From a virus: a DNA stretch of 64,000 bases. The DNA lies in IMG/VR virus record IMGVR_UViG_3300030107_007800, positions 1-64,000 of that record; one strand, 5' to 3'. A program made the position numbers and the translations under genes. The notes under the pieces are model-generated. The model did not search any database. It was not told where the DNA came from and saw only the letters and a list, made by a program, of their open reading frames with translations. This document shows, one piece after another, positions 614 through 25,061 of this stretch; within the stretch, counting starts at the first letter, position 1, and each line of letters opens with the position of its first letter.

Positions 614-1048
614 ATGAAAATTACACTAGAAAAATTGAAAGAGATTATTAAAGAAGAACTCACAAAAGAAATGCTAGGCGAATTAGATCTTCCGGATAGA
701 GGATTTGATGCAGAACAATGGGATTATCAACGAATGATGCTTGATTCTAAAATCAAATCAGTTTTGAAAGCGAAAGAGTCACAAGTATTAGACATCGATG
801 ATAAAAAAATAATGCGTATCTTGAGAGGGCTACATAGCGTAATCGGACCAAACCCTAATATAAAAGAAGAGCTTGATGATGATGTTATTATGATTCCGGG
901 CTATGGTAGGCTTAAAAGAGAACAAGTCAAAAGAAAGTTAGCTGAAATGCTAAAAGAAGCAGCAGAAGATGCCCTAGAAGGCAAATATCCCCACTTAGAT
1001 GGTGGAGTTATTCAGGCATTACACGCTGCGTTAAAGGAACAAAAATGA
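614..1048 (+). CDS. Unidentified protein with MKIT-type N-terminal helix
   Basis: 144 residues, charged, mostly predicted helical by eye, no recognised domain. It begins MKITLEKLKEIIKEEL, an amphipathic helix nearly the same as the start of the next gene (MKITKQRLQQIIQEEI) and of an internal start at 5768. Such a shared N-terminus on otherwise different phage proteins recalls the cleaved capsid-targeting peptide of T4 internal proteins (inference). SD-like CAGGAG lies at 600-605. The stop overlaps the next ATG (ATGA), so the two are translationally coupled. Confidence 0.75.
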   Translation: MKITLEKLKEIIKEELTKEMLGELDLPDRGFDAEQWDYQRMMLDSKIKSVLKAKESQVLDIDDKKIMRILRGLHSVIGPNPNIKEELDDDVIMIPGYGRLKREQVKRKLAEMLKEAAEDALEGKYPHLDGGVIQALHAALKEQK

Positions 1049-4352: not shown

Positions 4353-5348
4353 ATGATCGCAGATGTTGTCCTTGGTCTTCAGCACGGAGACGAAGCCAAG
4401 GGTAAGATTACCCACCAACTATGTTCAAAAGGAAATTATACTCACGTTATTCGATTTAACGGTGGTTGTAACGCTGGGCATACAATTTATCACGAAGGAA
4501 AAAAATTCGTAACCCACCATATTCCAGCAGGTGTTTTTTATGGCATTGAGTCTATCATTGGTCCCGGTTGCGTTATTGATCCAGAGCAGTTTTTCAAAGA
4601 AATTGAAGAATTAGAAGAAGCAGGCATTGCCGCCTCTACATTGGTTTCAATTGCTAAAAACGCACACGTTATCACTAGTTCACATAAAGATGAAGATAGT
4701 AAAGACACCAAAATAGGCACGACAAAGCGCGGAAACGGTCCAGCTTACCGCGATAAATATAACAGGAGTGGGGTTAGAGCGGAGGATACTCCCTGCCTAA
4801 AAGAGTATATTATTGATATTTATGAAGAACTTTATTCAAAAGATGGAGTTGAAATTCTTTTTGAAGGCGCTCAAGGATTTGGACTAGATATCGACCACGG
4901 TGATTACCCCTATGTAACATCATCACACTGCACATCCGCTGCTGCTCTCTTAAGCGGTGTGCCGCCACAGGCTATCCGAAAAGTTTGGGGAGTTGCTAAG
5001 ATTTATGAGACTTATGTGGGTGCAAAGACTTTTCAACCAAAAGGAGATGTCTTTAATGCTATTCAATTAATCGGAGAAGAATTTGGAGCTACAACTGGTC
5101 GAAAAAGACAATGTAATTGGACAAATCTAGACACTTTACTTAAAGCCGTTCGTATGAATGGAGTAACAGATCTTGTCTTTAATAAGATGGATGTTTTGCG
5201 AGAAGTTGGAGAATGGAAGTTCAAAAATAAAGATAAGCTCCTCAACTTTCAAGACGAAAGCCAAGTTAAAAGTTGGATCACTTCTTTTTTCTCCAACTCG
5301 CCCACCGTATCTAATGTCTACTTTTCCGGAAATAAAGATAGGATTTAG
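4353..5348 (+). CDS. purA: Adenylosuccinate synthetase, short archaeal/phage-type
   Basis: 331 residues. PurA joins IMP and aspartate with GTP to make adenylosuccinate on the way to AMP. Visible motifs are the P-loop-like GDEAKGK (12-18) with the catalytic Asp13, the catalytic His in NAGHT (40-44), GTTKRGNGPAY (122-132), EGAQG, and a C-terminal TGRKRQC followed by NKMDVL. Bacterial PurA is about 430 residues; this length fits the short archaeal and phage forms. Phage PurZ, which makes the 2-aminoadenine precursor, lacks the catalytic Asp. Here it is kept, so ordinary PurA activity is favoured. It has its own promoter. Confidence 0.85.
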   Translation: MIADVVLGLQHGDEAKGKITHQLCSKGNYTHVIRFNGGCNAGHTIYHEGKKFVTHHIPAGVFYGIESIIGPGCVIDPEQFFKEIEELEEAGIAASTLVSIAKNAHVITSSHKDEDSKDTKIGTTKRGNGPAYRDKYNRSGVRAEDTPCLKEYIIDIYEELYSKDGVEILFEGAQGFGLDIDHGDYPYVTSSHCTSAAALLSGVPPQAIRKVWGVAKIYETYVGAKTFQPKGDVFNAIQLIGEEFGATTGRKRQCNWTNLDTLLKAVRMNGVTDLVFNKMDVLREVGEWKFKNKDKLLNFQDESQVKSWITSFFSNSPTVSNVYFSGNKDRI

Positions 5349-5374
5349 TTCTTTTCGTCACTATTTAGTAAGTG

Positions 5375-6271
5375 ATGGAAAATAAACATAACATTAAAGA
5401 TCTTATCAGAAAGTTCTACCCATATGCAAGAAACAAACTAGGGTTTGAGCATCCTGTTCGTGTTATTATGCGACAAGATGCTGAAAACGCTCAACAATCT
5501 TTGGGCAAAACAGCATATTATGATCCAGAAGAAAAACTCATTGTCTTATATATAACAGACAGGCATCCCAAAGATGTTCTTCGTTCTTTTTCTCATGAGT
5601 TAGTCCATCACGCGCAAAAGTGCCGTGGTGATCTAGATGATTTAACAACACAAGGTCATTATGCGAAAGATGGTAAGGGCAGAGAAATAGAAAAAGAAGC
5701 CTATTTACAAGGTAACTTTAATGTCAGAGATTATGAAGATGAATTAAAATTCGAGGGATTAAATAAAATGAAAATTACAAAAGAAGAATTAAAAAATATT
5801 ATTTTTTCAACATTAAAAGAAATGAAAGAGGGAGACAAGCCTGACTTTCTCGATCTTGATAAAGATGGTGACAAAAAAGAGCCAATGAAAAAGGCTGCTA
5901 AGGATAAAAAAGAAAAGGTTGACGAAGTTGATCAAAAAGATGCAGAGGAAGAACTTGATGCCGCCCAGAAATTAGCTGGTAAATTCAAAAAAGACAAAAA
6001 GAAAAAAGATAAAGAAAAGTCCAAGCCCTCTCAACCATCCAGACCAGCGTATCCCGGTGATGAACATTTCTACGGCGGTTCTGATCTGGGAAGGGATATA
6101 GACGGCGCTGGCAATCCCAGAGAATATCCGAGAAGAGGTTACCAAGAATCAAAACAACAAGAAGAAAAACAAGTGGTAACAGAAACACCAAAAGAAACAA
6201 CACAAAGCGATACAGACTGGTATAATTCGAGCTTGTATAGTAAACTTAAGTCCTTGTGGACTAAAAAATAA
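5375..6271 (+). CDS. HExxH metallopeptidase-like protein fused to a charged, MKIT-containing tail
   Basis: 298 residues from ATG 5375 (a GTG at 5372 is the alternative). The N-terminal domain (1-130) carries HELVHHAQ, a zincin HExxH motif, with later Glu residues able to complete zinc binding. At residue 132 the sequence MKITKEELKNIIFSTLKEM appears, resembling the starts of the proteins at 614 and 1045. It is preceded by GAGGG at 5753-5757, so an internal start at 5768 may also yield a 167-residue protein. The tail is a Lys/Glu-rich disordered region with DLDKDGDKKEP. Role unknown; packaging with the head is one possibility. Confidence 0.75.
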   Translation: MENKHNIKDLIRKFYPYARNKLGFEHPVRVIMRQDAENAQQSLGKTAYYDPEEKLIVLYITDRHPKDVLRSFSHELVHHAQKCRGDLDDLTTQGHYAKDGKGREIEKEAYLQGNFNVRDYEDELKFEGLNKMKITKEELKNIIFSTLKEMKEGDKPDFLDLDKDGDKKEPMKKAAKDKKEKVDEVDQKDAEEELDAAQKLAGKFKKDKKKKDKEKSKPSQPSRPAYPGDEHFYGGSDLGRDIDGAGNPREYPRRGYQESKQQEEKQVVTETPKETTQSDTDWYNSSLYSKLKSLWTKK

Positions 6272-6284
6272 GGAGAATATAACA

Positions 6285-6500
6285 ATGGCTAGCCCGAGAA
6301 GAAGAAAATTGAAAAAAATTCTTAGATTAAGAAGAAAACAACAAGTTAATATTATTGAGCAACAAAAAGAAGAACTCCCCAAAATGGTTGACGAACCAGT
6401 GGTAAAAGAGGACAAAGTTGCTAAAAAGGAAGAGAAAGTTGTCGAAAAGAAAAAACCAGTAGCTAAAAAAGTAAAAAAAGCTGCTAAAAAGGATGATTAA
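6285..6500 (+). CDS. Small Lys/Arg-rich protein (histone H1-like composition)
   Basis: 71 residues, starting MASPRRRKLKKILRLRRK and ending in VAKKVKKAAKKDD, with an acidic-basic middle. A strong SD (AAGGAG) precedes the ATG. The composition, with Lys/Ala/Val repeats, resembles histone H1-like or nucleic-acid-binding tails, so DNA binding or condensation is possible. No folded domain is evident and low complexity alone is weak evidence. It sits in the operon with the MKIT-tagged proteins. Confidence 0.6.
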   Translation: MASPRRRKLKKILRLRRKQQVNIIEQQKEELPKMVDEPVVKEDKVAKKEEKVVEKKKPVAKKVKKAAKKDD

Positions 6501-6502
6501 TT

Positions 6503-6718
6503 ATGGCTTTTGCTGGCGAACCTGAACCGAAACCACAAATAGGCGGTGATCACACTATAAACCAGTTTGAAAACGCATCCGCAAACTATGAGAAGACTGA
6601 CACCGACCAAGTACCATTTTCTTTAGGTCTTAGCGGTGTCATACCTTTCAACATTGGGGCAATAGCATCCAAGTCTGCTTACACTGTAACAAAAGGCAAA
6701 ACATTCAATAACGATTAA
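6503..6718 (+). CDS. Unidentified small protein
   Basis: 71 residues, Asn/Thr/Ser-rich, with no charged helix and no signal peptide. The ATG follows the previous stop by two bases and has no clear SD, which suggests coupled translation. The C-terminal half (GLSGVIPFNIGAIASKSA) is hydrophobic and Gly-rich. I do not recognise it; a small virion component is possible from the context. Confidence 0.6.
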   Translation: MAFAGEPEPKPQIGGDHTINQFENASANYEKTDTDQVPFSLGLSGVIPFNIGAIASKSAYTVTKGKTFNND

Positions 6719-6729
6719 AAGGTTTAAAT

Positions 6730-7014
6730 ATGTCTGTAGATTATTATAAAATAACAAGAGATTTTTTGGTCAATGAGGGAAGAGTTCCTGACGCCAATAT
6801 AATGACTTATATACAAGCGTTATCTGAGGTCATAAATAATATGAGACCACGAACTCAATCAGAAAGTCACAGATTACTAATGGCTAAACAGCAACTTAAA
6901 GAAATAAAAAAAATGGCTCGAAGAATGCGAGAACAAATTAGCGTTTTAGAAGAGAGAGTAAATGTCCTTGAGGAAATTAAAGAGGATTTAGATAATGGTA
7001 AAGCTAATAGCTGA
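6730..7014 (+). CDS. Small coiled-coil protein
   Basis: 94 residues. The second half (about 50-90, QQLKEIKKMARRMREQISVLEERVNVLEEI) shows heptad spacing of Leu/Val/Ile and is almost certainly a coiled coil. The start follows an AAGG-like SD. It overlaps the next gene by 20 bases, which points to translational coupling with the ligase/nucleotidyltransferase fusion. A structural or assembly role is possible, function unknown. Confidence 0.7.
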   Translation: MSVDYYKITRDFLVNEGRVPDANIMTYIQALSEVINNMRPRTQSESHRLLMAKQQLKEIKKMARRMREQISVLEERVNVLEEIKEDLDNGKANS

Positions 7015-9685
7015 AGGTGGTGTTGCTGGTCACCTAGCGCACCTTTATGATAACCGGAGCTTAACATTTGAGAAGCTAGCAGAAATTTTAACTGCTGCAA
7101 GTAGAGGCAAACTCGTCGGAACTGAAAAGACTGACGGGTTTAATATTTATTTGGGCTTTAAAAACGGTGAAGCCAAAGCTGCTAGAAATAAAGGTGATAT
7201 GCAAAAGGGCGGCATGAATGCTGTTGACCTTGCTATGCGTGAATTTGCAGGCGGTCCAGAAATTAAAAAAGTCTACGTCGATGCATTCAATGCTTTTGAG
7301 GCTGCTGTTGCTTCCCTATCTGACGAAGAAAAAATAGCCATATTTGGTCCCGAAGGGGAAATATTCTACAATTCAGAAATTATGGGACCGGGCGCATCAA
7401 ATGTTGTTAATTACGACTCCAACATTATCACCATCCACTCCGCAGGTCACAAAAAATATGATGAAAAAATAGATAAAGTGGTCAATGCCGATACCTCTGA
7501 GGCTTCAAAAAAATTAGACAAAGTTGTAGATAAATTTGAACAAGCCACTCAAGGTAAGAACTTCAACGTACAGAGAACTGCTTTTGTTAATTTGCAAAAA
7601 CTTGAAGGAAGTTATGACTTAAAAATAGCCCTAGAAAAAATAAAAAAAGCAGGATTTCAGGGTGGTATGACTATTGAACAATACTTAGACGAAAAACTTC
7701 TTGAAGATATTCAAGAAAAATTTCCTTCATTACAAAAAGAAATTAAAAAAAATATATCTGATCGTATTCTGAAAAAAGAAGGTGCACCAACTTTAACTCA
7801 AATTTATAGGGGTCTTGGTGGCGACTCTAAAACAAAAGAGCAAGTAAGAAATTACGTTCAAACTTCCAACAAACTCATATCAAATTTAATTTGGCCCATA
7901 GAAGATGCGATTCATGACTTTGCTGTTGCGATGCTTGAAAATATGGAAAGTGCTTATATTCTTGATAATACCAAAGAACTCACTCGCCTTAAAAATGAAG
8001 TACAAACAGCGATAAAATCGATTCAGGCATACCAAGGTCCGGGTCAAGAGATGGCACACGAAATTTTAGCTAAACAGTTGCGAAAAATAAAGCATTTAGA
8101 CAATATTACATCTGTTGCAGAAGGGTTTGTTTTTGAGTACGATGGTCAGCTTTATAAATTTACTGGTAATTTTGCACCAATCAATCAAATTCTTGGCTTA
8201 TTCAGATTCGGAAGAAAGGGTGTCAAGATACCTAGAGTTGATGAAGCTAGGGGTGTCTCCGAAACAGTTGCTATTGTTCCCGGAGCTTTCAAGCCTCCAC
8301 ATAGGGGGCACTTAGATATGGTTAAGCATTACGCAGACAATGCTGATCGTGTTATTGTTATGGTTTCACCCAAAGCAAGGCAAACTCCTTCAGGACAAGA
8401 CGTGGGTCAGGAGCAATCTATTTCTATTTGGGAACTTTATTTAAATAAATCAGGACTTACAAACGTAGAAGTTATTCCTTCCCCACATCCTTCGCCAGTT
8501 AGATCTGCTTACGAATACGTAGAAAAAACAGCGGAGCCCGGAGAAATGGTTGTGCTTGGCACTAGCACAAAAGGTGGAGATCAAAGCAGGTTTGCTAAAA
8601 ATGTTCAGCAATATGCCAAAGAAGGTGTCAGGGTTTTAGATCCTATGAAATATGCGTTTAATCCGATTGGCGAAGAACTAAGCGCAACAGATTTTAGGGC
8701 AGCATTGGAGAGCGGAGAATTGGCAGCCGCCAAGTTTTTACCGAACGGGGTGAGCCCGGAGGATGTGTTAGAGATACTAGGCGTAAAGAGTGAGACTGAA
8801 GAAGTTGTTGAGCACATCACTCTCCCTATTTTCTTTCGGCTAATCGAAGAGGTTATGGACGAAAAAATGCTTACCACAAAAGCAGTCCAAAATGCCTATA
8901 AAAAACAATGGCGCAATACTATTAAAATGGTAAATAAAGGTGCCAATAAAGATACTGGGGGTGGCAAAGGTCATACTAAAGGTGATCCTAAATTAAAAAG
9001 CGCTCCTGCGGGTGGGGGTGCGATGCAGGAGGGTATCTATGGGGAAGTTTGGTACTATGCTTGCAATGAAGAGATTAGCGGAGACCTACAGCCAGTGTAT
9101 CTAACTCTCAATAAACACTTAGCAGAATCTATGGGCAAGTATGTTTATGCTTTTCAAATAAACTCTGATTCTGTCTGGCATATGGCAAGTTCTGAAAATA
9201 ACAGATTTTCTTTCGATATCGACACTATTGGACATTCAGATATAAACTTGTCTGAAGCTTCAGAAGCTTTTGATGTATTATGGGACCCTGTTCAGTTTAA
9301 AGAAGGTTTTGAAACAATATATGTTGTCAATCCCAGTGTTCTAGAAATCTCCTCTATGGCTGGAGGTTCTGTTCAGGGATATTCTTTGCCGCTTGGCGCT
9401 AAACCAAAAAAGAGAAAGAACAAAAAAGTATATATGGAACCTCACATGCATCAAGATGAGGCAAAAATTGAAGAAATTTCCACAATGAGTGGTGCAGAGC
9501 CTGCAATTGATGCTGCATTCGGACCAGATTATCCAACATATAAGGTTGATCAAAAAAAAGATAAAAATCAATATCCATACGCTGGTGTTAAAATAAACAT
9601 TAAAAAGAAAAAATATCAACACGACAAAGAAGATATTAAGTTTCCTAGATTGAGAAAAGATGCTCATAAATACAGTGAAGAGTAA
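6995..9685 (+). CDS. Ligase-like nucleotidyltransferase fused to NMN-adenylyltransferase-like domain
   Basis: 896 residues, three parts. (1) Residues 1-400 carry nucleic-acid-ligase landmarks: motif I KTDG (Lys45), EGEIFYNSEIM in motif III position, and EGFVFEYDG plus YKFTG (376-391) as motifs IV and V. (2) From about 420 a cytidylyltransferase-like Rossmann domain has GAFKPPHRGH (about 429-438) and LSATDFR near 562-568, the HxGH and SxTxxR motifs of NMN adenylyltransferases and relatives. (3) A C-terminal 270 residues of unknown, charged and Gly-rich sequence. Motifs in both enzymes look intact. An NAD+-using or NAD+-remaking nucleic acid ligase is an attractive but unproven reading. The domains could also be repurposed structurally. 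The gene overlaps the previous one. Confidence 0.75.
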   Translation: MVKLIAEGGVAGHLAHLYDNRSLTFEKLAEILTAASRGKLVGTEKTDGFNIYLGFKNGEAKAARNKGDMQKGGMNAVDLAMREFAGGPEIKKVYVDAFNAFEAAVASLSDEEKIAIFGPEGEIFYNSEIMGPGASNVVNYDSNIITIHSAGHKKYDEKIDKVVNADTSEASKKLDKVVDKFEQATQGKNFNVQRTAFVNLQKLEGSYDLKIALEKIKKAGFQGGMTIEQYLDEKLLEDIQEKFPSLQKEIKKNISDRILKKEGAPTLTQIYRGLGGDSKTKEQVRNYVQTSNKLISNLIWPIEDAIHDFAVAMLENMESAYILDNTKELTRLKNEVQTAIKSIQAYQGPGQEMAHEILAKQLRKIKHLDNITSVAEGFVFEYDGQLYKFTGNFAPINQILGLFRFGRKGVKIPRVDEARGVSETVAIVPGAFKPPHRGHLDMVKHYADNADRVIVMVSPKARQTPSGQDVGQEQSISIWELYLNKSGLTNVEVIPSPHPSPVRSAYEYVEKTAEPGEMVVLGTSTKGGDQSRFAKNVQQYAKEGVRVLDPMKYAFNPIGEELSATDFRAALESGELAAAKFLPNGVSPEDVLEILGVKSETEEVVEHITLPIFFRLIEEVMDEKMLTTKAVQNAYKKQWRNTIKMVNKGANKDTGGGKGHTKGDPKLKSAPAGGGAMQEGIYGEVWYYACNEEISGDLQPVYLTLNKHLAESMGKYVYAFQINSDSVWHMASSENNRFSFDIDTIGHSDINLSEASEAFDVLWDPVQFKEGFETIYVVNPSVLEISSMAGGSVQGYSLPLGAKPKKRKNKKVYMEPHMHQDEAKIEEISTMSGAEPAIDAAFGPDYPTYKVDQKKDKNQYPYAGVKINIKKKKYQHDKEDIKFPRLRKDAHKYSEE

Positions 9686-9696
9686 AAGCAAATAAT

Positions 9697-9716
9697 TAAT
9701 ACTATTTAGAGTATTA
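9697..9716 (+). other. Small hairpin in leader of the 248-residue acidic protein gene
   Basis: TAATACT (9697-9703) and AGTATTA (9710-9716) form a 7-bp stem with a 6-base loop, immediately before the SD AAGGAGAG. It is AT-rich and weak. It might modulate translation or protect the 5' end. It is not a terminator because no T run follows. Confidence 0.35.
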
Positions 9717-9730
9717 AGGAGAGATTTATA

Positions 9731-10477
9731 ATGTATATCGACAGACAAGAAATCGTTGAAGAACTAAGACTTCGTAAACTAATCAGAAAGGCGATACAAA
9801 TTGCAGAAATCAAAAGAGAAAAAGACCACACCAGCTCACTTGGGGACGAAGATCGCCTAAGAAGCGTTATTAAAACTATTTTAAGAGAGGATGAGGTTGG
9901 AGATACTAACAGTGCTCCATATGATAATACAGGATTAAACACTCTTAATACTCTCTTTGATAATATACTTACTACAATTGAGACTGGATATAAAGAATTA
10001 ACAACTTCAAAAGAACAACGAGATTCTTATGCTTCTCACATACTTAAGGCTGTAGAGAATGTGCTAGCCCCGCTTCGTGCGCTGGACAATGCAGATAGCA
10101 ATCTGTCAGAGGAAATAGATATTGATATTAGTAAAGACCGCCCAGAAGATATGAGAGATGTTAGGAAAGATGCTAAGGAGCAAGAAATAGAAGATTTTAG
10201 TATTGAAGGCGAAGATTTAAGTGGCAGAGACAAGGCTTATGAATATTTCAATAAAGTAGAAACTCAAATAGTTGATGCGTATAAAACATTGCATAGTCCC
10301 GAAGACATAACATCTTTCTACGATGGATTACTTATGAATTTAGATTTGTATTTTCAAAAGTTTGAAGACGAAATGCAACCCAATGTCCAACCTCCGGAAA
10401 CCGGGGTTGATGACATGTCATCTCCAGATCTAGATGATAGTGGCGAGATGGACCTAGAAGATATTGCTAGCTTATAA
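9731..10477 (+). CDS. Unidentified acidic helical protein
   Basis: 248 residues, strongly acidic, helical and Leu-rich, ending in an Asp/Ser/Gly-rich tail (DDMSSPDLDDSGEMDLED). The N-terminus (DRQEIVEELRLRKLIRKAI) is a charged amphipathic helix. Composition resembles phage scaffold or prohead core proteins, but no sequence motif fixes this. SD AAGGAGAG precedes the ATG. It is the last gene of the first plus-strand block and is followed by a strong terminator at 10510-10531. Confidence 0.7.
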   Translation: MYIDRQEIVEELRLRKLIRKAIQIAEIKREKDHTSSLGDEDRLRSVIKTILREDEVGDTNSAPYDNTGLNTLNTLFDNILTTIETGYKELTTSKEQRDSYASHILKAVENVLAPLRALDNADSNLSEEIDIDISKDRPEDMRDVRKDAKEQEIEDFSIEGEDLSGRDKAYEYFNKVETQIVDAYKTLHSPEDITSFYDGLLMNLDLYFQKFEDEMQPNVQPPETGVDDMSSPDLDDSGEMDLEDIASL

Positions 10478-10509
10478 TTATTTTTATTTTTATTTATGGT
10501 AATAAAAAA

Positions 10510-10531
10510 AGCAGCCTCAGTTGAGGCTGCT
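10510..10531. terminator. Bidirectional Rho-independent terminator
   Basis: AGCAGCCTC (10510-10518), loop AGTT, GAGGCTGCT (10523-10531), with a T run after it and an A run before it, so it can stop transcripts from both sides. It separates converging genes (9731-10477 plus and 10568-11074 minus). Confidence 0.9.
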
Positions 10532-10567
10532 TTTTTGTTTGTATAAACAAACTTAAGATATCAAATC

Positions 10568-11074
10568 TTACGAGATACGATAAAGGTGGACAGCGGATGC
10601 CCCTCTTCTTTGAATTCTAAATCCAGCGGAAGCAGATCCTGAAAGTTGTGCGCCGTGTGTCTGATGAGAGTCACCAGCATTTGCTTGAACTACCATACTA
10701 CCAACAAGTGTGACACCAGAGCCAGCACTAAGTGTTAACTTAAAGTTTGGGTTGGTTGTTTCTGTGTTAATAATATAGAAATCTGCCGAATCGTTATCGG
10801 CAGTAAGACCTAAGCCAGATACAATATTTGCTGCTGTATCGGTTGCTTTAGTTCTAGGTGCGCTTCCATCAAATGTTAGTACTCTAGCGGACATCTGAGC
10901 AGCTGTTAATACCGCATTGTCATCTACCAACGCTCCAGCGTTAGCCTGTGGTGGAACCACTCCGCCCCTAGCGTAAAGACCTCCTGTCATTGTATTAGTG
11001 CCAGAGGTTGTCAAGCTGCTATTCATAGTCACCGCAGCAACAAATGTTACTGGTCCGTTAAATTGTTTTGCCAT
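10568..11074 (-). CDS. Probable virion decoration or fibre-like protein
   Basis: 168 residues, rich in Ala, Thr, Ser and Gly with almost no Cys or Trp. The sequence alternates short beta-prone segments (FKLTLSAGSGVTLVGSMVV) and ends in a polar beta-rich tail. This is typical of small phage capsid-decoration or fibre proteins, but I cannot assign a named family. The start ATG at 11074 has an upstream SD (AGGAGAAA). The gene converges on the terminator at 10510-10531 and has its own 120-bp leader region. Function is inferred from composition. Confidence 0.6.
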   Translation of the reverse strand: MAKQFNGPVTFVAAVTMNSSLTTSGTNTMTGGLYARGGVVPPQANAGALVDDNAVLTAAQMSARVLTFDGSAPRTKATDTAANIVSGLGLTADNDSADFYIINTETTNPNFKLTLSAGSGVTLVGSMVVQANAGDSHQTHGAQLSGSASAGFRIQRRGASAVHLYRIS

Positions 11075-11197
11075 TTTATTATTTCTCCTATAGGTTAAAA
11101 TTTCATATTAATATGCATTGATGAGACATAGCTCATCATAGTAATTAGTTTCTTACAATGCAAAACGAAGGATACTTGTCTGAAGTTTAAGTTAATA

Positions 11198-11452
11198 TTA
11201 AGGAATTTTTTGATACACAATGCCTACCTTGTATCTCTGCCCGTATTTTTCTTGAATTTTATTTTCTAAATCAAATAAGTGTCTAAATTGAAGTTCTTCT
11301 CTTCCTTCCAATTGTAGATCTCTTATATAAAACGTTTGAACCTCTGGTTCATAATTATCGAAAGCCAAATCAACTTTCCAAAATTTAGAGCAATATTTGG
11401 CATGCTCTTCTGTCCATTCTTTTACTAAATCAGTGTCTTCTTGGCGAATCAT
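11198..11452 (-). CDS. Unidentified small protein
   Basis: 84 residues from ATG at 11450-11452 (MIRQEDTDLVKEW). A longer frame runs upstream through tRNA-Asn and is an artefact. The protein is charged, with a helical N-terminus and an alternating strand/helix C-terminal half (YKVGIVYQKIP). No family recognised. It lies just downstream of tRNA-Asn on the same strand and may be co-transcribed with it. Confidence 0.65.
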   Translation of the reverse strand: MIRQEDTDLVKEWTEEHAKYCSKFWKVDLAFDNYEPEVQTFYIRDLQLEGREELQFRHLFDLENKIQEKYGQRYKVGIVYQKIP

Positions 11453-11544: not shown

Positions 11545-11823
11545 TTAACTCCTTTCTTTTAATTTTACAAGAGTTTTTAGTGTTTTGTTAAGATCTATTA
11601 TTTGAACGTCGTCGCAGCGATAATATTCGGGGATAAAATAATCTTCATTTTCATTTCTCATTTTGGCTTTCCATTTTTGAGATGATGTATATTTTTCATC
11701 ATCAACCCAATCAACTTTAGCCCAAGACCAACCATCACCTTTAAAGTTTTCTTTTACTTTTTTTACTTTTCCGTATCTATGTAATCCACCATAGTTTTGA
11801 AAAACTATATCATTTACTTTCAT
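11545..11823 (-). CDS. Unidentified small protein, possibly SH3-like
   Basis: 92 residues, starting MKVNDIVFQNYGG and continuing with short beta-prone segments (KVKKVKENF, WSWAKVDWVDDEK), a pattern compatible with an SH3- or Tudor-like barrel. Rich in Lys and aromatic residues. The start overlaps the stop of the upstream minus-strand gene (ATGA), and the stop abuts tRNA-Asn. Function unknown. Confidence 0.65.
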   Translation of the reverse strand: MKVNDIVFQNYGGLHRYGKVKKVKENFKGDGWSWAKVDWVDDEKYTSSQKWKAKMRNENEDYFIPEYYRCDDVQIIDLNKTLKTLVKLKERS

Positions 11824-12953
11824 TCTTTCTCCACTTTATTAGCCGTAACTGGTTCAAAAAGAACCACAAGATCCATAGCGGGAGTGGAATAATAAGCACC
11901 AATATAATTTTTATGTATTTCTTTAAAAAGTTCAGTCCATTCGATATCGTTTCTAAAGCCATAAGTTGGGTGCCTAATGGATTTCATAATCCCTTCAGGA
12001 TCGCTTTTTATACTATACAGCTTACTTGCAGGAATGTCAAGAGAAAAAAGATGTTTTCCCTGTTTAACTTGGCTCTCCGCTTGATCGAGGTTTACATAAA
12101 AGAAGGAGCGAGGATATGATGACCTTTCTTTTTCTCTTCTAGAATATCTTTGTTTTCCGAACTGCGACGGATCAACTTCTATTTCCTCGGCTTTAACTGG
12201 AGCATAATGATAAAGAGTGACTTTTCCATCGCTATCATATGCGGATAAATCTGCTTCATTTAAATTATAAACCATATGCATTTCGTTGATTTCTCTATCA
12301 ACCCTTTGCGCCATCAATTTCGCCGCTTGCCTTTGTTTTCCGGGCAGATCTTCATATGTTTTTGTTTCCTCATCTTCCTTCATAACAAAGGGTCGTTTGC
12401 CAATGCGAGACATAAACTCACCAGTTTCCCCTCCAGCAAACTTACCAACGGTCTCCTTCTGATCTAATCCGGGGTAGGTCTTATTGGTCCCATAAAGGTA
12501 ACCTTCTTCTCCTTTTGGAACAAGAATAACCGAGTCTTGACAATATCTTTTGCCGAGGTTGATTATCTCCTCAAAGAAATGCGGGTCATCTTTAAGATTA
12601 GTTACAAAGAAGCTGGCTTCTTTTACTTCTCTTGGTACTTTTTCTGGATTAATAGATCCAAAGTTCTCAATATAAGAACCTTGAATGTTCTTAACGCCAT
12701 AGCCCTGACTAAGAAGAAAGGCTGAGAGTTCTTTATTATTTCTCTTGTTACTCTCACCTCTTTTACCCATCTTATCCCTTTCAGATAGCTCTTCATCAGA
12801 TGGGGGCAGATAAACGCATACAGATTTGTCATTTATATCGCCACGAAATGCTGTAATAAAGGCTGTATCATGATCAAGCATATCTTGCCTAATTCTCGCT
12901 AAACCAGCCTCATTTATAAGAAATTCTTTCCAATTTTTGTGTGGATTGTTCAT
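11820..12953 (-). CDS. Unidentified two-part protein, C-terminal part possibly ADP-ribosyltransferase-like
   Basis: 377 residues. The N-terminus (HKNWKEFLINEAGLARI) resembles a T4-like capsid-targeting helix. Residues about 25-200 contain AFITAFRGD, QGYGVKNIQGSYIE and VPKGEEGYLYGTN. The C-terminal part (about 245-375) has VTLYHYAPVKAEE, RSFFYVNLDQAE and LFSLDIPASKLY, a strand-helix order that loosely resembles ADP-ribosyltransferase-type folds. No catalytic Glu motif could be fixed, so this is only a suggestion. T4 packages the Alt ADP-ribosyltransferase with such a peptide. The gene follows tmRNA on the same strand. Confidence 0.6.
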   Translation of the reverse strand: MNNPHKNWKEFLINEAGLARIRQDMLDHDTAFITAFRGDINDKSVCVYLPPSDEELSERDKMGKRGESNKRNNKELSAFLLSQGYGVKNIQGSYIENFGSINPEKVPREVKEASFFVTNLKDDPHFFEEIINLGKRYCQDSVILVPKGEEGYLYGTNKTYPGLDQKETVGKFAGGETGEFMSRIGKRPFVMKEDEETKTYEDLPGKQRQAAKLMAQRVDREINEMHMVYNLNEADLSAYDSDGKVTLYHYAPVKAEEIEVDPSQFGKQRYSRREKERSSYPRSFFYVNLDQAESQVKQGKHLFSLDIPASKLYSIKSDPEGIMKSIRHPTYGFRNDIEWTELFKEIHKNYIGAYYSTPAMDLVVLFEPVTANKVEKE

Positions 12954-12984: not shown

Positions 12985-13309
12985 TGGTGGAGGTGGGGGG
13001 AATCGAACCCCCGTCCTAAATAACTCTGCTAATGAGTCGTTCACAAGGTTAGTCTGTAAAATACTAGAAAATAACACAGACAATTTATTTTCTATAAGCC
13101 TGCTTTCGCACCACTCATTTTTAGGAAATGAGAAACCATATGCCATTTTGGTTTAGAAGGTATGGCTACCCCCGATTACGCAGCTAGTGCGTATTCAGAG
13201 TAAGTGTCAGTATTAGCACTTATAAGTTTCAGCGTTTTTACAGAGACCGTCGCTGCCCTCTGCCTTGCACACATTAGTTTCACTACTCAGTCGAAACCTG
13301 TACACCCCC
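12985..13309 (-). ncRNA. ssrA: tmRNA (complete, single-piece)
   Basis: 325 bases on the minus strand. The tRNA-like ends are visible: 5' GGGGGTG pairs with CACCTCC, followed by A and an encoded CCA. A T arm with GTTCGATTC lies at the 3' end, and the 5' region has the typical TACAGGTTTCGACTGAGTAG start. The tag frame (13176-13217 on the minus strand) reads ANTDTYSEYALAA followed by TAA, ending in the ALAA signal recognised by ClpXP-type proteases. tmRNA rescues stalled ribosomes and tags the product together with SmpB, which is not seen in this window. Confidence 0.95.
13176..13217 (-). other. tmRNA tag reading frame
   Basis: GCT resume codon followed by 12 sense codons and TAA, encoding ANTDTYSEYALAA. 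The hydrophobic ALAA end matches known degradation tags. The exact resume codon is inferred from the usual Ala start. Confidence 0.85.
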
Positions 13310-15011: not shown

Positions 15012-16163
15012 ATGAATGATTTAAATTTGCCCACTTTAGATATTGAAGATCTGGATATGGAAGAGATCGAAGAATCTCAGAAAGACGAACTAATAGATGA
15101 TGCTGGCGGATCTTTGACATATGGAATTGTTGGGTCCGGTCAAGGTGGTGGACGTATGGCAAAAGCATTTTATGACCTTGGTTATACCAAAACTGTGGCA
15201 TTTAATTTAGCAGAATCTGATTTAAACTATTTGGATCTCCCAGATAGACATAAACACCATTTAAAATTTGAAGGATCTCAGGGTGCGGGTAAAAATCACG
15301 AGTTTTCTCAAAAAGCATTTGAAACTAGAAGTCAAGAAATCTTTAATAAATTTAAAGAAATTTTTGGTAACGATATTGATAGGATTATGATCTGTGTTGG
15401 TGTTGGTGGTGGAACTGGCGGTGGGAGTGTTATGCAACTCCTTAAGGTCGCAAAAAAATACTTTACATATATAGGTGTTGACAATCCGAATGAAAGAGTG
15501 GGTGTCGTAGCTTCGCTACCAACCACAGGGGAATGTGCATCACCAGTTGTTGCTAATAATTCTTATAATAGAATGAATGATCTTTGCAAAGCAGCAGAGA
15601 AAAAAGAATTTGCTCCATTGGTTATTGTTGATAATGATAAAATTAAGAAATTGTATCCTAAGCTTACTGTTAAGCAGTTTTGGCCAACATTAAACAATAC
15701 AGTTGCAGGATTATTTCACATATTCAATATTTTATCCAACAAAGATTCAAACTACACAGCGTTTGATTCCGCAGATTACAACAGTATCATGAAGACTTCG
15801 GGTTGTATGATTTTTGGAGCAACCACAGTTAAAAATGTAGAAAGCGAAACATCTTTATCCGCCGCGCTGAAAAACAACTTAGAAAAAACACTTCTTGCTG
15901 GAGGTTTTGATTTGACAACAGCCCAAGGTGCAGCGTCAGTAATTGTCGGTGGTTCAGTTTTGTATGAGACTGTTCCCGGTTTGATGGACAATATTGAATA
16001 TGGCTTCGATACCTTGGCTGCTTTAACGGGCGGAGCAATTATACACAGAGGCATCTATGAGGATCCAGAAAGAGACAAGCTTGTCGCTTATACAATCGTT
16101 GGCGGTCTCAAATCTCCGAAAAAAAGAATTGAAGAATTAAAAAAGTTCTTGAAACTTAAGTAA
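15012..16163 (+). CDS. Tubulin/FtsZ-family GTPase
   Basis: 383 residues. After an acidic N-terminal extension (1-34) come GIVGSGQGGGRMA (38-50), the first GTP-binding loop, and the tubulin signature GVGGGTGGGS (130-139), followed by VASLPTTGE and NNSYNRMNDL. The order matches FtsZ/TubZ/PhuZ proteins, which form GTP-driven filaments. Phage PhuZ positions the phage nucleus, while TubZ moves DNA. Sequence alone cannot tell which applies here. The C-terminus (KSPKKRIEELKKFLKLK) is basic, unlike the acidic tail of PhuZ. It has a strong SD TAGGAG. Filament formation is inferred. Confidence 0.88.
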   Translation: MNDLNLPTLDIEDLDMEEIEESQKDELIDDAGGSLTYGIVGSGQGGGRMAKAFYDLGYTKTVAFNLAESDLNYLDLPDRHKHHLKFEGSQGAGKNHEFSQKAFETRSQEIFNKFKEIFGNDIDRIMICVGVGGGTGGGSVMQLLKVAKKYFTYIGVDNPNERVGVVASLPTTGECASPVVANNSYNRMNDLCKAAEKKEFAPLVIVDNDKIKKLYPKLTVKQFWPTLNNTVAGLFHIFNILSNKDSNYTAFDSADYNSIMKTSGCMIFGATTVKNVESETSLSAALKNNLEKTLLAGGFDLTTAQGAASVIVGGSVLYETVPGLMDNIEYGFDTLAALTGGAIIHRGIYEDPERDKLVAYTIVGGLKSPKKRIEELKKFLKLK

Positions 16164-16631: not shown

Positions 16632-17264
16632 ATGGAAAAGTATTGGAATATGAAAGTAGATGATAATAGGGAAAGGACTGAGCCGGAGGGACCAATGATG
16701 ATGGCTGGAGCTTCGGATGATAGTAGGGTATCTGTTGAATATAATAAAATATACTTTTACTCCGGTGTCACTCGACAAGATAATCTCCAACTGAACAAGC
16801 ATATACATACCACCGGTCATAAGTTATCAAACGTACAGCAGGTATATGGATTAAGTTCTCCCCCTAAGTTGTATCTTCACATAAATTCATATGGTGGTTC
16901 GGTATTTGCAGGGTTTGGTTCTGTTGATTATATACGCAATTGTAAAGTTCCCGTAGTTTCAGTTATAGATGGGTGTGCCGCATCGGCAGCGACTATTATG
17001 AGTGTTGTTGCGGAGGAGAGGTTAATGCACGAGCATGCTTTTATGCTAATTCACCAGCTTTCATCTGGTATGTGGGGTAAGTTTGAGGAGATGAAAGACG
17101 ATATGAAGAATAATGAAATGTTGATGAAAAAAATCATTGGTATCTACGAGGAGCATACAAATATACCGAAAAGTAAAATCAAAGATATTCTTAAAAGAGA
17201 TCTTTGGTGGGATGCCAAGACTTGTTTGAAATATGGTCTTGTTGATGATATTATTACGCCATGA
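16632..17264 (+). CDS. ClpP-like serine peptidase
   Basis: 210 residues from ATG 16632, with SD AAGAGG five bases upstream. ClpP/SppA fold motifs: LHINSYGGSVFAGF, the nucleophile Ser118 in GCAASAA, His141 in LIHQ and Asp190 in DLWWDAKTC. The Ser-His-Asp spacing (23 and 49) is like bacterial ClpP. The N-terminal 35 residues are an unusual Met-rich extension. It may cleave phage or host proteins with a host ATPase, or act as a prohead protease, as ClpP-fold enzymes do in other phages. Neighbours do not decide. It overlaps the next gene by four bases. Confidence 0.85.
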   Translation: MEKYWNMKVDDNRERTEPEGPMMMAGASDDSRVSVEYNKIYFYSGVTRQDNLQLNKHIHTTGHKLSNVQQVYGLSSPPKLYLHINSYGGSVFAGFGSVDYIRNCKVPVVSVIDGCAASAATIMSVVAEERLMHEHAFMLIHQLSSGMWGKFEEMKDDMKNNEMLMKKIIGIYEEHTNIPKSKIKDILKRDLWWDAKTCLKYGLVDDIITP

Positions 17265-17719
17265 GTGAAAAAACAATCTTAGTAAGCGGCGCTTTCAACC
17301 CCCTCCATTTCGGTCATCTTTTATTACTCAGAGAAGCCAGTAAATATGGTAAAGTGATTGTAGCGCTAAATAGTGATGAATGGATCATTCATAATAAGGG
17401 ATATCTCTTGTTTGATTTTGAAGCCAGAAAAAGTTTACTAGAAGAGTGTGAATATGTGTCTAAAGTTGTCCCTTTTGATGACAGCGACGGCGATGCGGTT
17501 TATGCCCTGTTTGAGATTAGACCAACATACTTCGGTAATGGCGGGTCTGCCACCAGTCGCTCGTTACCAAAAGAAGAGATGCGAGTTTGTGAATATCTTG
17601 GTATTGAGCCTATTTTTAATCTAGGAGATAATATAAAGATTATCGATAATGATGTATTAGCGTCTGCTCAAAAATCTATAATTAATTACGCAAACAAAGA
17701 ATTAGATAAGATTGTTTAA
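17261..17719 (+). CDS. Cytidylyltransferase-like nucleotidyltransferase
   Basis: 152 residues. Rossmann nucleotidyltransferase with SGAFNPLHFGH (HxGH motif) at the N-terminus, ALNSDEWI and a late S-A-Q-K-S segment in the place of the C-terminal triphosphate-binding motif. It resembles glycerol-3-phosphate cytidylyltransferase and the HldE adenylyltransferase domain. It is a close relative of the protein at 24603-25061 (both have NSDEW and a KGY segment). It probably activates a sugar or polyol phosphate with CTP or ATP for the glycan island. Overlaps the ClpP-like gene. Confidence 0.8.
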   Translation: MSEKTILVSGAFNPLHFGHLLLLREASKYGKVIVALNSDEWIIHNKGYLLFDFEARKSLLEECEYVSKVVPFDDSDGDAVYALFEIRPTYFGNGGSATSRSLPKEEMRVCEYLGIEPIFNLGDNIKIIDNDVLASAQKSIINYANKELDKIV

Positions 17720-23269: not shown

Positions 23270-24603
23270 GAAAGAAAGTAATTGTAAGAGGACCAGTTTT
23301 AAGTAGATCCGGATATGGAGAGCAAGCCAGATTTGCGGTCAGGTCTCTTAGGGCGCACGAGGATAAATACGATATATATCTGAATCCAACCAGATGGGGT
23401 TCTTTAAGTTGGACTTGGGAGGACACCGAAGAAAGAAGGTGGATGGACGAGATGATAGCAAAAACAATGTCGTATGAAGAGCAGTGCGCTCAGGCAGGCA
23501 TAACATCTGGTGCACATAAATATGACATATCTTTGCAAGTAACAATACCAAATGAGTGGGATAATGTTACAGCGGCATATAATGTGGGATACACAGCGGG
23601 GATAGAGGTGGATCGAGTTTCTGCTGTGTGGATCCAACAAGCACTAAAGATGGACAAAATTGTTGTTGTGTCTGATCATTCAAAAGATATTTTTTACGAT
23701 ACAAAATATACAGAACGTGATACTGAAGGTAACTATGTTAGAGACCTTGCAATTAATGCAGAGGATCCGAGACATCCGGAGGTTGTGACTGTTAATTACC
23801 CTGTAAAAGAAACTGGTTTTGATAAATTTGAACACAAATTTGATACTAAATTTAATTTCTTAACAGTGGCACAATGGGGTCCAAGAAAAAATCTGGAATC
23901 AACAATAGGTTGGTTTGTAGAGCAATTCAAAGACGATGAAGATGTTGGTTTAATTGTGAAGACAGCCATTGGAAACACATCCACAATAGACAAGTTGTAT
24001 ACAACTGAAAGACTACAGAATTTGATGAATTCTCCTCGTTTAAAAGACAGGAAGTGTAAGATTTATTTAATTCACGGCGATATGACTGAAGAAGAAATGA
24101 ACGGCTTGTATCGACATAATAGTGTGAAAGCTTTTATAAATTTGGCTCACGGAGAAGGATTTGGTTTGCCAATGTTTGAAGCTGCATACCATAAATTGCC
24201 TGTAATTGCAATGGGTTGGAGCGGTCAGGTGGATTTTCTTTATGGTCCAGATAAATCTAGGAGCAAATCAAAGAAATCCAAAAAAACCACCGTCCCTTAT
24301 TTTGCAAAGGTTAGCCACAAACTTGGAGAAGTTAGGGAAGATTCTTTGTGGGAGGGAGTTATTGATAAGGGTTCTTTATGGGCATATCCCGTGGAGAAAA
24401 GCTATAAATCTGTTCTTAAAGATATGAAAGATAATTACAAGGATCACAAAAAGGTTGCTGTTGATTTGGACAAATATATACGCTCAAAATTTACAAAGGA
24501 AAGACAATATAAACTCTTTGCAGACGCAGTTTACGGTGACCAGCCTGAAGAATTTGACGTTGAAGATTGGCTTGGATCTTTAGGCGAGGAGGTATTTGAG
24601 TAG
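23266..24603 (+). CDS. Glycosyltransferase (GT-B, GT4-like)
   Basis: 445 residues from ATG 23266 (MRKKVIVRGP), overlapping the previous stop. It has an N-terminal SRSGYGEQARFAV loop, a middle AQWGPRKNLESTI segment and the donor-site motif HGEGFGLPMFEAAY with a nearby LPVIA. A Lys-rich insert (SKSKKSKKT, about residue 340) is unusual. It is a soluble GT4-type transferase. Its neighbour downstream starts in the same four-base overlap, using GTG. Specificity cannot be inferred. Confidence 0.85.
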   Translation: MRKKVIVRGPVLSRSGYGEQARFAVRSLRAHEDKYDIYLNPTRWGSLSWTWEDTEERRWMDEMIAKTMSYEEQCAQAGITSGAHKYDISLQVTIPNEWDNVTAAYNVGYTAGIEVDRVSAVWIQQALKMDKIVVVSDHSKDIFYDTKYTERDTEGNYVRDLAINAEDPRHPEVVTVNYPVKETGFDKFEHKFDTKFNFLTVAQWGPRKNLESTIGWFVEQFKDDEDVGLIVKTAIGNTSTIDKLYTTERLQNLMNSPRLKDRKCKIYLIHGDMTEEEMNGLYRHNSVKAFINLAHGEGFGLPMFEAAYHKLPVIAMGWSGQVDFLYGPDKSRSKSKKSKKTTVPYFAKVSHKLGEVREDSLWEGVIDKGSLWAYPVEKSYKSVLKDMKDNYKDHKKVAVDLDKYIRSKFTKERQYKLFADAVYGDQPEEFDVEDWLGSLGEEVFE

Positions 24604-25061
24604 TGTATTATGATGTTGTTGTTTTGAGTGGTGGCTTCGATCCTATGCACGTCGGTCATTTACGTATGATACAGGAATCAGCAAAGATGGCTCAAATTGT
24701 AATAGTTGGGGTTAATTCTGATGAGTGGCTAATGAGAAAAAAAGGGTATGTTTTCATGCCTTTGGAAGAAAGGCTAGAAATGGTTCAAGGCATCCGTGGA
24801 GTTGCAAAAGCTATGGAATTTGACGACAACGACAATAGTGCCTGCGATCTTTTGCATAGAGTTCGATCTTTATGGCCTGAATTCAAAGTAGCGTTTGCTA
24901 ATGGAGGCGACAGAACATCTGATAATATCCCAGAGATACCGGTTGCAGAAAAGCTTGGCGTTCATTTAATTTGGGGCGTTGGCGGAGGAAAAATCCAAAG
25001 CTCAAGCGACTTAGTTAATTCACACCCTCGATTTGCTTCACTTAAAGAAAAGGAAGAATAA
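24603..25061 (+). CDS. Cytidylyltransferase-like nucleotidyltransferase (paralogue of 17261)
   Basis: 152 residues starting with GTG, coupled to the previous gene. SGGFDPMHVGH (HxGH motif), VGVNSDEWLMRKKGY, PLEERLEMV and a C-terminal VGGGKIQSSS (SxSS) match glycerol-3-phosphate cytidylyltransferase/HldE-C family enzymes. It is clearly related to the protein at 17261-17719. The product would be a CDP- or ADP-activated polyol or heptose used by the glycosyltransferases around it. The substrate is inferred only from the family. Confidence 0.85.
   Translation: MYYDVVVLSGGFDPMHVGHLRMIQESAKMAQIVIVGVNSDEWLMRKKGYVFMPLEERLEMVQGIRGVAKAMEFDDNDNSACDLLHRVRSLWPEFKVAFANGGDRTSDNIPEIPVAEKLGVHLIWGVGGGKIQSSSDLVNSHPRFASLKEKEE

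What the first reader, a model, noticed from the sequence alone, without database searches (positions are those of the whole stretch)
6995..9685. Nucleic-acid-ligase-like domain fused to an NMN-adenylyltransferase-like domain
The N-terminal part keeps ligase motif I (KTDG), III, IV (EGFVF) and V (YKFTG). The next domain keeps HxGH and SxTxxR of NMN adenylyltransferases. NAD+-dependent ligases release NMN, which NMNAT turns back into NAD+, so the fusion could be a self-recycling ligase. Another option is NAD+ repair against host NAD+-depleting defences. The third, C-terminal domain is unassigned.
Basis: partly seen in the sequence, partly recalled or inferred. Interest (0 to 1): 0.8.

Follow-up and report, generated by a model that had tools for sequence, protein, structure and literature searches.

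The report
Phage ligase–nucleotidyltransferase repair enzyme
This phage gene makes one protein that joins an RNA-ligase-like (strand-sealing) enzyme to a second enzyme that attaches a nucleotide to some unknown partner molecule; hundreds of uncultured phages keep the two together in either order, so they probably form a nucleic-acid repair machine rather than the NAD+-recycling ligase first proposed.

Summary
ORF 6995-9685 (896 aa) encodes a ligase-like domain (aa 8-409), a HIGH-superfamily nucleotidyltransferase (aa ~422-610) and a lineage-specific tail. K45, D47, G48, R64, E128, E376, G377 and K388 are invariant in 97 diverse relatives. The AlphaFold model (pLDDT 93.8) finds RNA ligases (T4 Rnl1, Naegleria, archaeal) as its 18 best PDB matches, with weak E-values. 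The pairing is far more than chance: 103 of 106 non-redundant complete relatives, fetched by the ligase domain alone, carry the HIGH domain in the same protein (68 Lig-NT, 35 NT-Lig). Cyanophages, pelagiphages and Stenotrophomonas phages keep separate neighbouring genes (DUF6267 or a ligase-like gene beside 'cytidyltransferase'). P-loop kinase, Pol-beta nucleotidyltransferase and KOW-like domains are fused or adjacent in other phages.

There is no NMN-binding Ia domain; the HIGH domain scores better as CoaD than as any NMNAT; NadV is absent from all 23 records of this clade. Most likely it is a modular end-healing-and-sealing enzyme, possibly virion-borne: relatives of the HIGH partner were found in cyanophage virions by mass spectrometry. 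The HIGH substrate is unknown. New variant of a known kind.

The parts
6995..9685 (+). Whole ORF, 896 aa: ligase-like domain, HIGH nucleotidyltransferase, lineage-specific tail
7016..8221 (+). Ligase-like covalent nucleotidyltransferase domain, aa 8-409 (motif I 7124-7138, Ia-like ARNK 7181-7192, III 7367-7381, IV 8120-8134, V 8153-8167)
   Evidence: (pLDDT 93.8)
7496..8089 (+). Helical insertion of about 200 aa between motif IIIa and motif IV (aa 168-365)
   Evidence: secondary structure of the model
8258..8824 (+). HIGH-superfamily nucleotidyltransferase domain, aa 422-610 (HxGH 8300-8311; LSATDFR 8678-8698)
9047..9349 (+). Small alpha/beta domain, aa 685-785, modelled with moderate confidence, unassigned; only in close relatives
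9344..9454 (+). Conserved linear motifs EISSMAGGSVxGYSLPLGAKPKK and YMEPHMHQ in a disordered tail
6730..7014 (+). 94-aa coiled-coil-like ORF overlapping the start of the ligase ORF by 20 bases; conserved neighbour in 53 of 86 loci
9731..10477 (+). Downstream 248-aa ORF, conserved in 60 of 86 loci; the C-termini of some relatives (e.g. L036, L040, L060) resemble it by eye
5372..6271 (+). Putative zinc-metallopeptidase ORF (HELVH), conserved in 62 of 86 loci; L086 has a similar domain fused N-terminal to the ligase domain
10505..10536 (+). Terminator-like hairpin at the end of the gene set
   Evidence: consensus scan only

Best explanation
It is a phage-specific, modular nucleic-acid end-repair enzyme. 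The N-terminal domain is a divergent RNA-ligase-type covalent nucleotidyltransferase: K45 takes AMP from a donor (most simply ATP), passes it to a 5'-phosphate end and seals that end to a 3'-OH. It differs from T4 Rnl1 in having a helical insertion of about 200 aa before motif IV. The HIGH domain transfers a nucleotide (by its best matches, AMP) onto a phosphate-bearing partner needed in the same process; what that partner is remains unknown. Other phages add, or place next to it, a P-loop kinase (5'-end phosphorylation) and a Pol-beta nucleotidyltransferase (3'-end addition), which makes a healing-and-sealing set. It may ride in the virion and act early, for example on RNA cut by host defences or on broken phage DNA. 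Shown by sequence and model: domain identities, invariant catalytic residues, near-obligate pairing, partner genes. Inferred: ligase activity, RNA versus DNA, HIGH substrate, virion location.
For: Motifs I, III, IV and V are invariant in 97 of 97 relatives. The 18 best PDB fold matches are all RNA ligases or RNA-ligase-like entries, and several viral RNA ligases match with E from 6e-4. The best local profile alignment to T4 Rnl1 puts K45 on K99 and E128 on E159 unprompted. 103 of 106 complete ORFs carry both domains, in both orders. DUF6267 is followed by the HIGH gene in 72 of 81 loci (73 if a 61-base overlap counts); in the other 8 the sequence ends within 374 bases. L080 joins a window-type ligase to a HIGH domain of the cyanophage/pelagiphage type. 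AAA_33 kinase and KOW-like domains fused in the NT-Lig clade are the families found as separate genes between DUF6267 and the HIGH gene in pelagiphage HTVC008M. Pol-beta-type motifs are in the same ORF in L008, L134, L143 and L163. No canonical RNA or DNA ligase was detected in 23 of 23 window-clade records. HIGH relatives were detected in cyanophage virions (PMC10665884, PMC9602691).
Against: PDB fold E-values are weak (0.015 best) with low global TM-scores. Profile-profile scores against Rnl1 are not above shuffled controls (19 of 100 shuffles as high). Motif V has one lysine (YKFTG), not KxK. No biochemical data exist. Virion detection concerns the separate HIGH protein of cyanophages, and its authors note possible carry-over. 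There is no explanation yet for why an end-repair ligase needs a HIGH enzyme.
Confidence: 0.5

Rival explanations
1. The phage's own DNA nick-sealing ligase, standing in for T4 gp30, with the HIGH domain in an accessory role.
For: No PF01068 or PF01653 DNA ligase in 23 of 23 window-clade records or in cyanophage S-PRM1. In S-PRM1 and HTVC008M the genes lie shortly after the primase-helicase gene, with a nuclease-like ORF beside them (nuclease-like read by eye).
Against: Stenotrophomonas phage Moby has a canonical DNA ligase and Rnl1 as well as the ligase-like/HIGH gene set. Fold matches favour RNA ligases over DNA ligases. Records are fragments.
Confidence: 0.18
2. NAD+ salvage or repair: the HIGH domain is a true NMNAT that rebuilds NAD+ against host NADase defences, and the ligase domain uses or protects that pool.
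For: HxGH and SxTxxR motifs; archaeal NMNAT 1f9a is the best PDB sequence-profile hit (6.6e-11). Authors of the virion proteomes suggested an NAD role (PMC9602691).
Against: NadV absent in 23 of 23 window-clade records. Curated NMNAT models score below coaD and far below cut-offs. A ligase partner is not part of the phage NAD pathways described in PMC9503650.
Confidence: 0.1
3. Self-recycling NAD+-dependent ligase: the ligase releases NMN and the HIGH domain turns it back into NAD+.
For: Near-obligate pairing in both orders; some relatives also carry a P-loop kinase, as NadR does.
Against: No Ia (NMN-binding) domain before K45, no PF01653 match, no evidence of NMN specificity. No NAD+-dependent RNA ligase is named in the paper library searched.
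Confidence: 0.06
4. Virion morphogenesis protein: the ligase-like fold helps tail or head assembly, as T4 gp63 both ligates RNA and catalyses tail-fibre attachment.
For: T4 rnlA is annotated with both roles. Related sets lie near structural genes in Mel-JY01 and close to gp26 in Moby.
Against: Full conservation of catalytic motifs in two enzyme domains argues for catalysis. Gene position differs between phages.
Confidence: 0.08
5. A protein- or small-molecule-modifying enzyme: lysyl-AMP or HIGH chemistry used to AMPylate a protein or build a modified nucleotide, not to seal polynucleotides.
For: HIGH and Pol-beta enzymes often act on small molecules or proteins; long variable tails; some relatives carry extra domains (ParB-like, peptidase-like) typical of polyvalent proteins.
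Against: Nearest folds are polynucleotide ligases; the kinase and Pol-beta partners fit end repair.
Confidence: 0.08

Closest known systems
T4 RNA ligase 1 (gp63, Rnl1) and other ATP-dependent RNA ligases
   Same: Order of motifs I, III, IV, V; strand layout around KxDG; a P..N.I..Y segment after motif III; best fold matches.
   Different: Helical insertion of about 200 aa before motif IV; no Rnl1-type C-terminal domain; single Lys in motif V; below Pfam PF09511 detection; nearly always paired with a HIGH domain.
Cyanophage DUF6267 (PF19782) plus 'cytidyltransferase' (PHROG 395) gene pair
   Same: Neighbouring genes, similar length and motif order (KWDG, QGDL, PEGFV, KLV), HIGH partner immediately downstream; L080 carries a HIGH domain of that type.
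   Different: Separate genes; motif III has D instead of E; profile match weak (6 of 100 shuffles as high); no Pfam hit of the window protein to PF19782.
Phosphopantetheine adenylyltransferase (CoaD) and NMN adenylyltransferases (NadM, NadR, NadD)
   Same: Fold, GxFxPxHxGH and SxTxxR motifs.
   Different: Far below equivalog cut-offs; one subset of relatives has GxHH instead of HxGH.
RNA ligase with RlaP Pol-beta, kinase and other healing enzymes (jumbo-phage RNA repair sets, PMC7824862)
   Same: Kinase and Pol-beta nucleotidyltransferase found with the ligase.
   Different: The HIGH nucleotidyltransferase is the constant partner here and is not mentioned in the RNA-repair section of that review.
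Polyvalent proteins (PMC5512222)
   Same: Variable multi-domain make-up, e.g. peptidase-like, ParB-like, kinase, exonuclease domains.
   Different: A fixed ligase plus HIGH core; virion packaging not shown for this clade.

Membership tests
Rnl1-type RNA ligase (PF09511) | Motifs I, III, IV, V with catalytic K/E/E/K in order | tested here: met
   Invariant in 97 of 97; T4 Rnl1 motifs compared
Rnl1-type RNA ligase (PF09511) | Significant sequence-profile match to the family | tested here: not met
   No hit or in G000; hhalign not above shuffles
Rnl1-type RNA ligase (PF09511) | RNA-ligase nucleotidyltransferase fold | tested here: inconclusive
   RNA ligases are the top 18 PDB hits but best E is 0.015; viral RNA ligases from E 6e-4
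Rnl1-type RNA ligase (PF09511) | Strand-joining activity | not testable with these tools
   needs biochemistry
NAD+-dependent DNA ligase (LigA, PF01653) | N-terminal Ia NMN-binding domain | tested here: not met
   Only about 44 aa before K45; no PF01653 match in G000
HIGH nucleotidyltransferase superfamily | Curated match plus HxGH | tested here: met
   PF01467 21.5 vs 21; TIGR00125 29.7 vs 27.7; fold
NMN adenylyltransferase | Passes an NMNAT equivalog cut-off | tested here: not met
   All NMNAT models 13-19 bits against cut-offs of 112 or more
NMN adenylyltransferase | NAD+ synthesis from NMN | not testable with these tools
   needs assay
Phage NAD+ salvage (NadV with NadM or NadR) | NadV co-occurrence | tested here: not met
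   0 of 23 window-clade records, controls positive; records are fragments
DUF6267 (PF19782) | Pfam match | tested here: not met
   No match for the window protein; related by motif order and partner only
Polyvalent protein | Packaged in the virion and injected | not tested
   Only literature for cyanophage HIGH relatives (PMC10665884, PMC9602691)

The most novel reading that the evidence does not exclude
The HIGH domain works on the nucleic acid itself. NMNAT-type chemistry joins AMP to a 5'-phosphate through a 5'-5' pyrophosphate, the same bond that ligases make on RNA or DNA ends. The HIGH domain could therefore install, remove or remodel a 5' cap (AppRNA or an NAD-like cap) while the ligase domain seals, making a virion-borne two-centre enzyme for 5'-end editing of a kind not described before.
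Probability: 0.1. Interest if true: 0.88.

Novelty: new variant of a known kind. Interest (0 to 1): 0.62.

Why it matters
It links a Pfam family of unknown function (DUF6267) and the widely annotated cyanophage 'cytidyltransferase' to one functional unit found in hundreds of marine and freshwater phages, and predicts what they do. The HIGH proteins found in cyanophage virions have been read as NAD+ metabolism genes; their constant partner is a ligase-like enzyme, which points to nucleic-acid repair instead. The prediction can be tested with one expression construct and point mutants of K45 and H439. It also offers a candidate ligase for phages in which no canonical DNA or RNA ligase was found.

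Tried and rejected
Sequence search of the ligase profile against PDB chains: no credible hit. Profile-profile comparison with T4 Rnl1 and DUF6267: right motif register in the best local alignment, but scores not clearly above column-shuffled controls; global hhalign gave nothing. T4-type late promoter TATAAATA: not clearly enriched (13 vs 8.4 expected) and none on the + strand upstream of the operon. Capsid-targeting tag idea: an N-terminal helix tag in the NT-Lig clade (MNKLTxWL...) is not shared by neighbouring genes (3 found, 4.65 expected). A conserved L-[LI]-x-E before the invariant GG at the start of the ligase domain (P1 E in 85 of 101, P3 L/I in 98 of 101) resembles a T4 gp21 cleavage site (recalled from memory), but P1 is M in 11 cases, so it is left as an open idea. 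Kinase segment against PDB: only a weak Pnkp1 hit (E 0.1). A genome scan found only five metagenome-assembled-genome contigs, probably phage. PADLOC: nothing relevant.

Full report
What is there. The ORF at 6995-9685 (+) encodes 896 aa. The window is part of an 84.6-kb virus record of IMG/VR. The N-terminal domain has no Pfam match; the middle domain just passes PF01467. Genes from 4353 to 10477 run in one direction, with a terminator-like hairpin at 10505-10536 (consensus only). The start of the ligase ORF overlaps the preceding 94-aa ORF by 20 bases.

The N-terminal domain. Two scans of viral contigs returned 80 relatives each, with more available (574 and 590 confirmed). In 97 diverse sequences K45, D47, G48, R64, E128, E376, G377 and K388 are invariant, together with H16, N50, Y140, H148, T390 and G391. 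AlphaFold gave pLDDT 93.8 and pTM 0.91. The strand order is that of covalent nucleotidyltransferases: a strand before KxDG, two strands after it, motif III in a strand, motifs IV and V in two strands at the end. A helical insertion of about 200 aa lies before motif IV. Against PDB the first 18 hits are RNA ligases (one titled putative ATP-dependent DNA ligase from Aquifex), with E from 0.015 and low TM-scores. Against predicted viral structures, phage homologues come first, then viral RNA ligases from E 6e-4. T4 Rnl1 shows the same motif spacing by eye (KEDG, FEFVAPTNRIVLAY, IEGYVAV, FKIK). The best local profile alignment puts K45 on K99 and E128 on E159, but the score is not above shuffles. 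I conclude an RNA-ligase-type fold and active site, not proven membership of Rnl1.

The HIGH domain. Sequence profiles find archaeal NMNAT (6.6e-11) and PPAT (2.8e-9). Structure finds PPAT and NMNAT at E about 1e-6. Curated models favour coaD, but all are far below cut-off. So it is a HIGH nucleotidyltransferase, probably an adenylyltransferase, of unknown substrate. A second class has GRFQPMGxHH in place of HxGH, mostly in the NT-Lig clade but also in six window-order proteins.

The pairing. Loci were fetched by the ligase domain only. Of 106 non-redundant complete ORFs, 68 have Lig-NT order and 35 NT-Lig; L080 has an HxGH domain missed by the profile, L002 has it in the next gene (9256-11217), and L020 is unresolved. 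The Microcystis phage Mel-JY01 has NT-Lig. In cyanophage S-PRM1 the gene before the 'cytidyltransferase' is DUF6267 (E 5e-140). It carries TKWDG, QGDLL, PEGFV and KLV in the same order, and in 81 related loci the HIGH gene follows in 72, overlaps in one, and cannot be judged in 8 because the contig ends. L080 and L043 join a window-type ligase domain to a HIGH domain related to that of pelagiphage HTVC008M (E 4e-26 and 2e-5). In Stenotrophomonas phage Moby a Pol-beta-like ORF, an unassigned ORF, a ligase-like ORF and a HIGH gene are consecutive (assignments of the first and third by eye, no Pfam hit).

Other partners. In HTVC008M the genes between DUF6267 and the HIGH gene encode a KOW-like protein and a P-loop kinase. 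Both are found fused in front of NT-Lig in other phages: the kinase in 10 ORFs (E 1e-36 to 1e-52) and immediately upstream in others, the KOW-like domain in 11 (Pfam AAA_33 and Zeta_toxin). Pol-beta motifs are in the same ORF in L008, L134, L143 and L163 and nearby in L037, L052, L064 and L089. An exonuclease domain and a putative protease domain also occur. Kinase, Pol-beta enzyme and ligase are the usual parts of RNA end repair (PMC7824862).

Tests of the NAD ideas. NadV (PF04095) is absent in 23 of 23 window-clade records, with positive controls, and present in L002's phage and Moby. Canonical Rnl1, Rnl2, ATP-dependent and NAD+-dependent DNA ligases are also absent in those 23. The records are fragments of 84-205 kb, so absence is suggestive only.

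Virion link. HIGH ('cytidylyltransferase' or 'NMNAT') proteins were detected by mass spectrometry in virions of S-CREM2 and S-SCSM1, and are reported for S-CBWM1 and S-SZBM1 (PMC10665884, PMC9602691). The S-CREM2 virion also held a SAM hydrolase; this window has a SAM-lyase-like gene at 11820-12953. The authors caution that carry-over is possible. Nothing here shows packaging for the window's phage.

Mechanism. I commit to an end-healing-and-sealing enzyme with an auxiliary nucleotidyl transfer by the HIGH domain (0.5). RNA is favoured over DNA because of the fold matches and partner enzymes; DNA nick sealing is the main rival (0.18). The weakest point is the purpose of the HIGH domain, and that is where a surprise could lie.

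Novelty. The parts are known kinds; the ligase family and its near-obligate HIGH partner do not appear in the papers found (library limited). I rate it a new variant of a known kind.

Noticed in passing
window 614-1048, 1045-1542; L016 2658-2939; L023 5551-5994; L044 9368-9757 and others: A short N-terminal helix tag MK[IL]TKxxLxxIIxEE[IL] recurs on otherwise unrelated proteins near the ligase locus: 28 of 1286 ORFs, 0.3 expected from shuffles. It may be a targeting or packaging signal.
   Followed up: partly
aa 4-9 of the window ORF (7004-7021) and the same point in relatives: Hydrophobic L-[LI]-x-E directly before the invariant GG that starts the ligase domain, also at internal positions of fusions; modelled as disordered. 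Possible processing site, but P1 is Met in 11 of 101.
   Followed up: partly
window 11820-12953 (-): SAM-lyase-like protein (PF23780, 2.4e-7) with an extra C-terminal region of about 200 aa; the N-terminus NWKEFLINEA looks like a T4 capsid-targeting sequence (by eye).
   Followed up: no
window 4353-5348: Adenylosuccinate synthetase gene (PF00709, 1.8e-84) in the same gene string; such phages may make a modified purine. Found near the ligase ORF in 18 of 86 loci.
   Followed up: no
window 12985-13309 (-): Phage-encoded tmRNA with tag ANTDTYSEYALAA, plus five tRNA genes.
   Followed up: no
window 15012-16163: Tubulin/FtsZ-like (TubZ-type) gene in a virus record.
   Followed up: no
window 17261-17719 and 24603-25061: Two further small HIGH-type cytidylyltransferase-like genes, distinct from the fused one; the second lies in a long block of sugar and glycosyltransferase-like genes (about 21995-47363, by eye).
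   Followed up: no
L002 9256-11217 and L170 5926-7287: Huge-phage proteins with a degenerate ligase-like region (NLDG instead of KxDG in L002, by eye), in L002 fused to the HIGH domain; possibly an inactive paralogue.
   Followed up: partly
L134, L143, L163: Pol-beta nucleotidyltransferase motif GSISNYNWSKFSDVDL in the same ORF as the ligase domain.
   Followed up: partly
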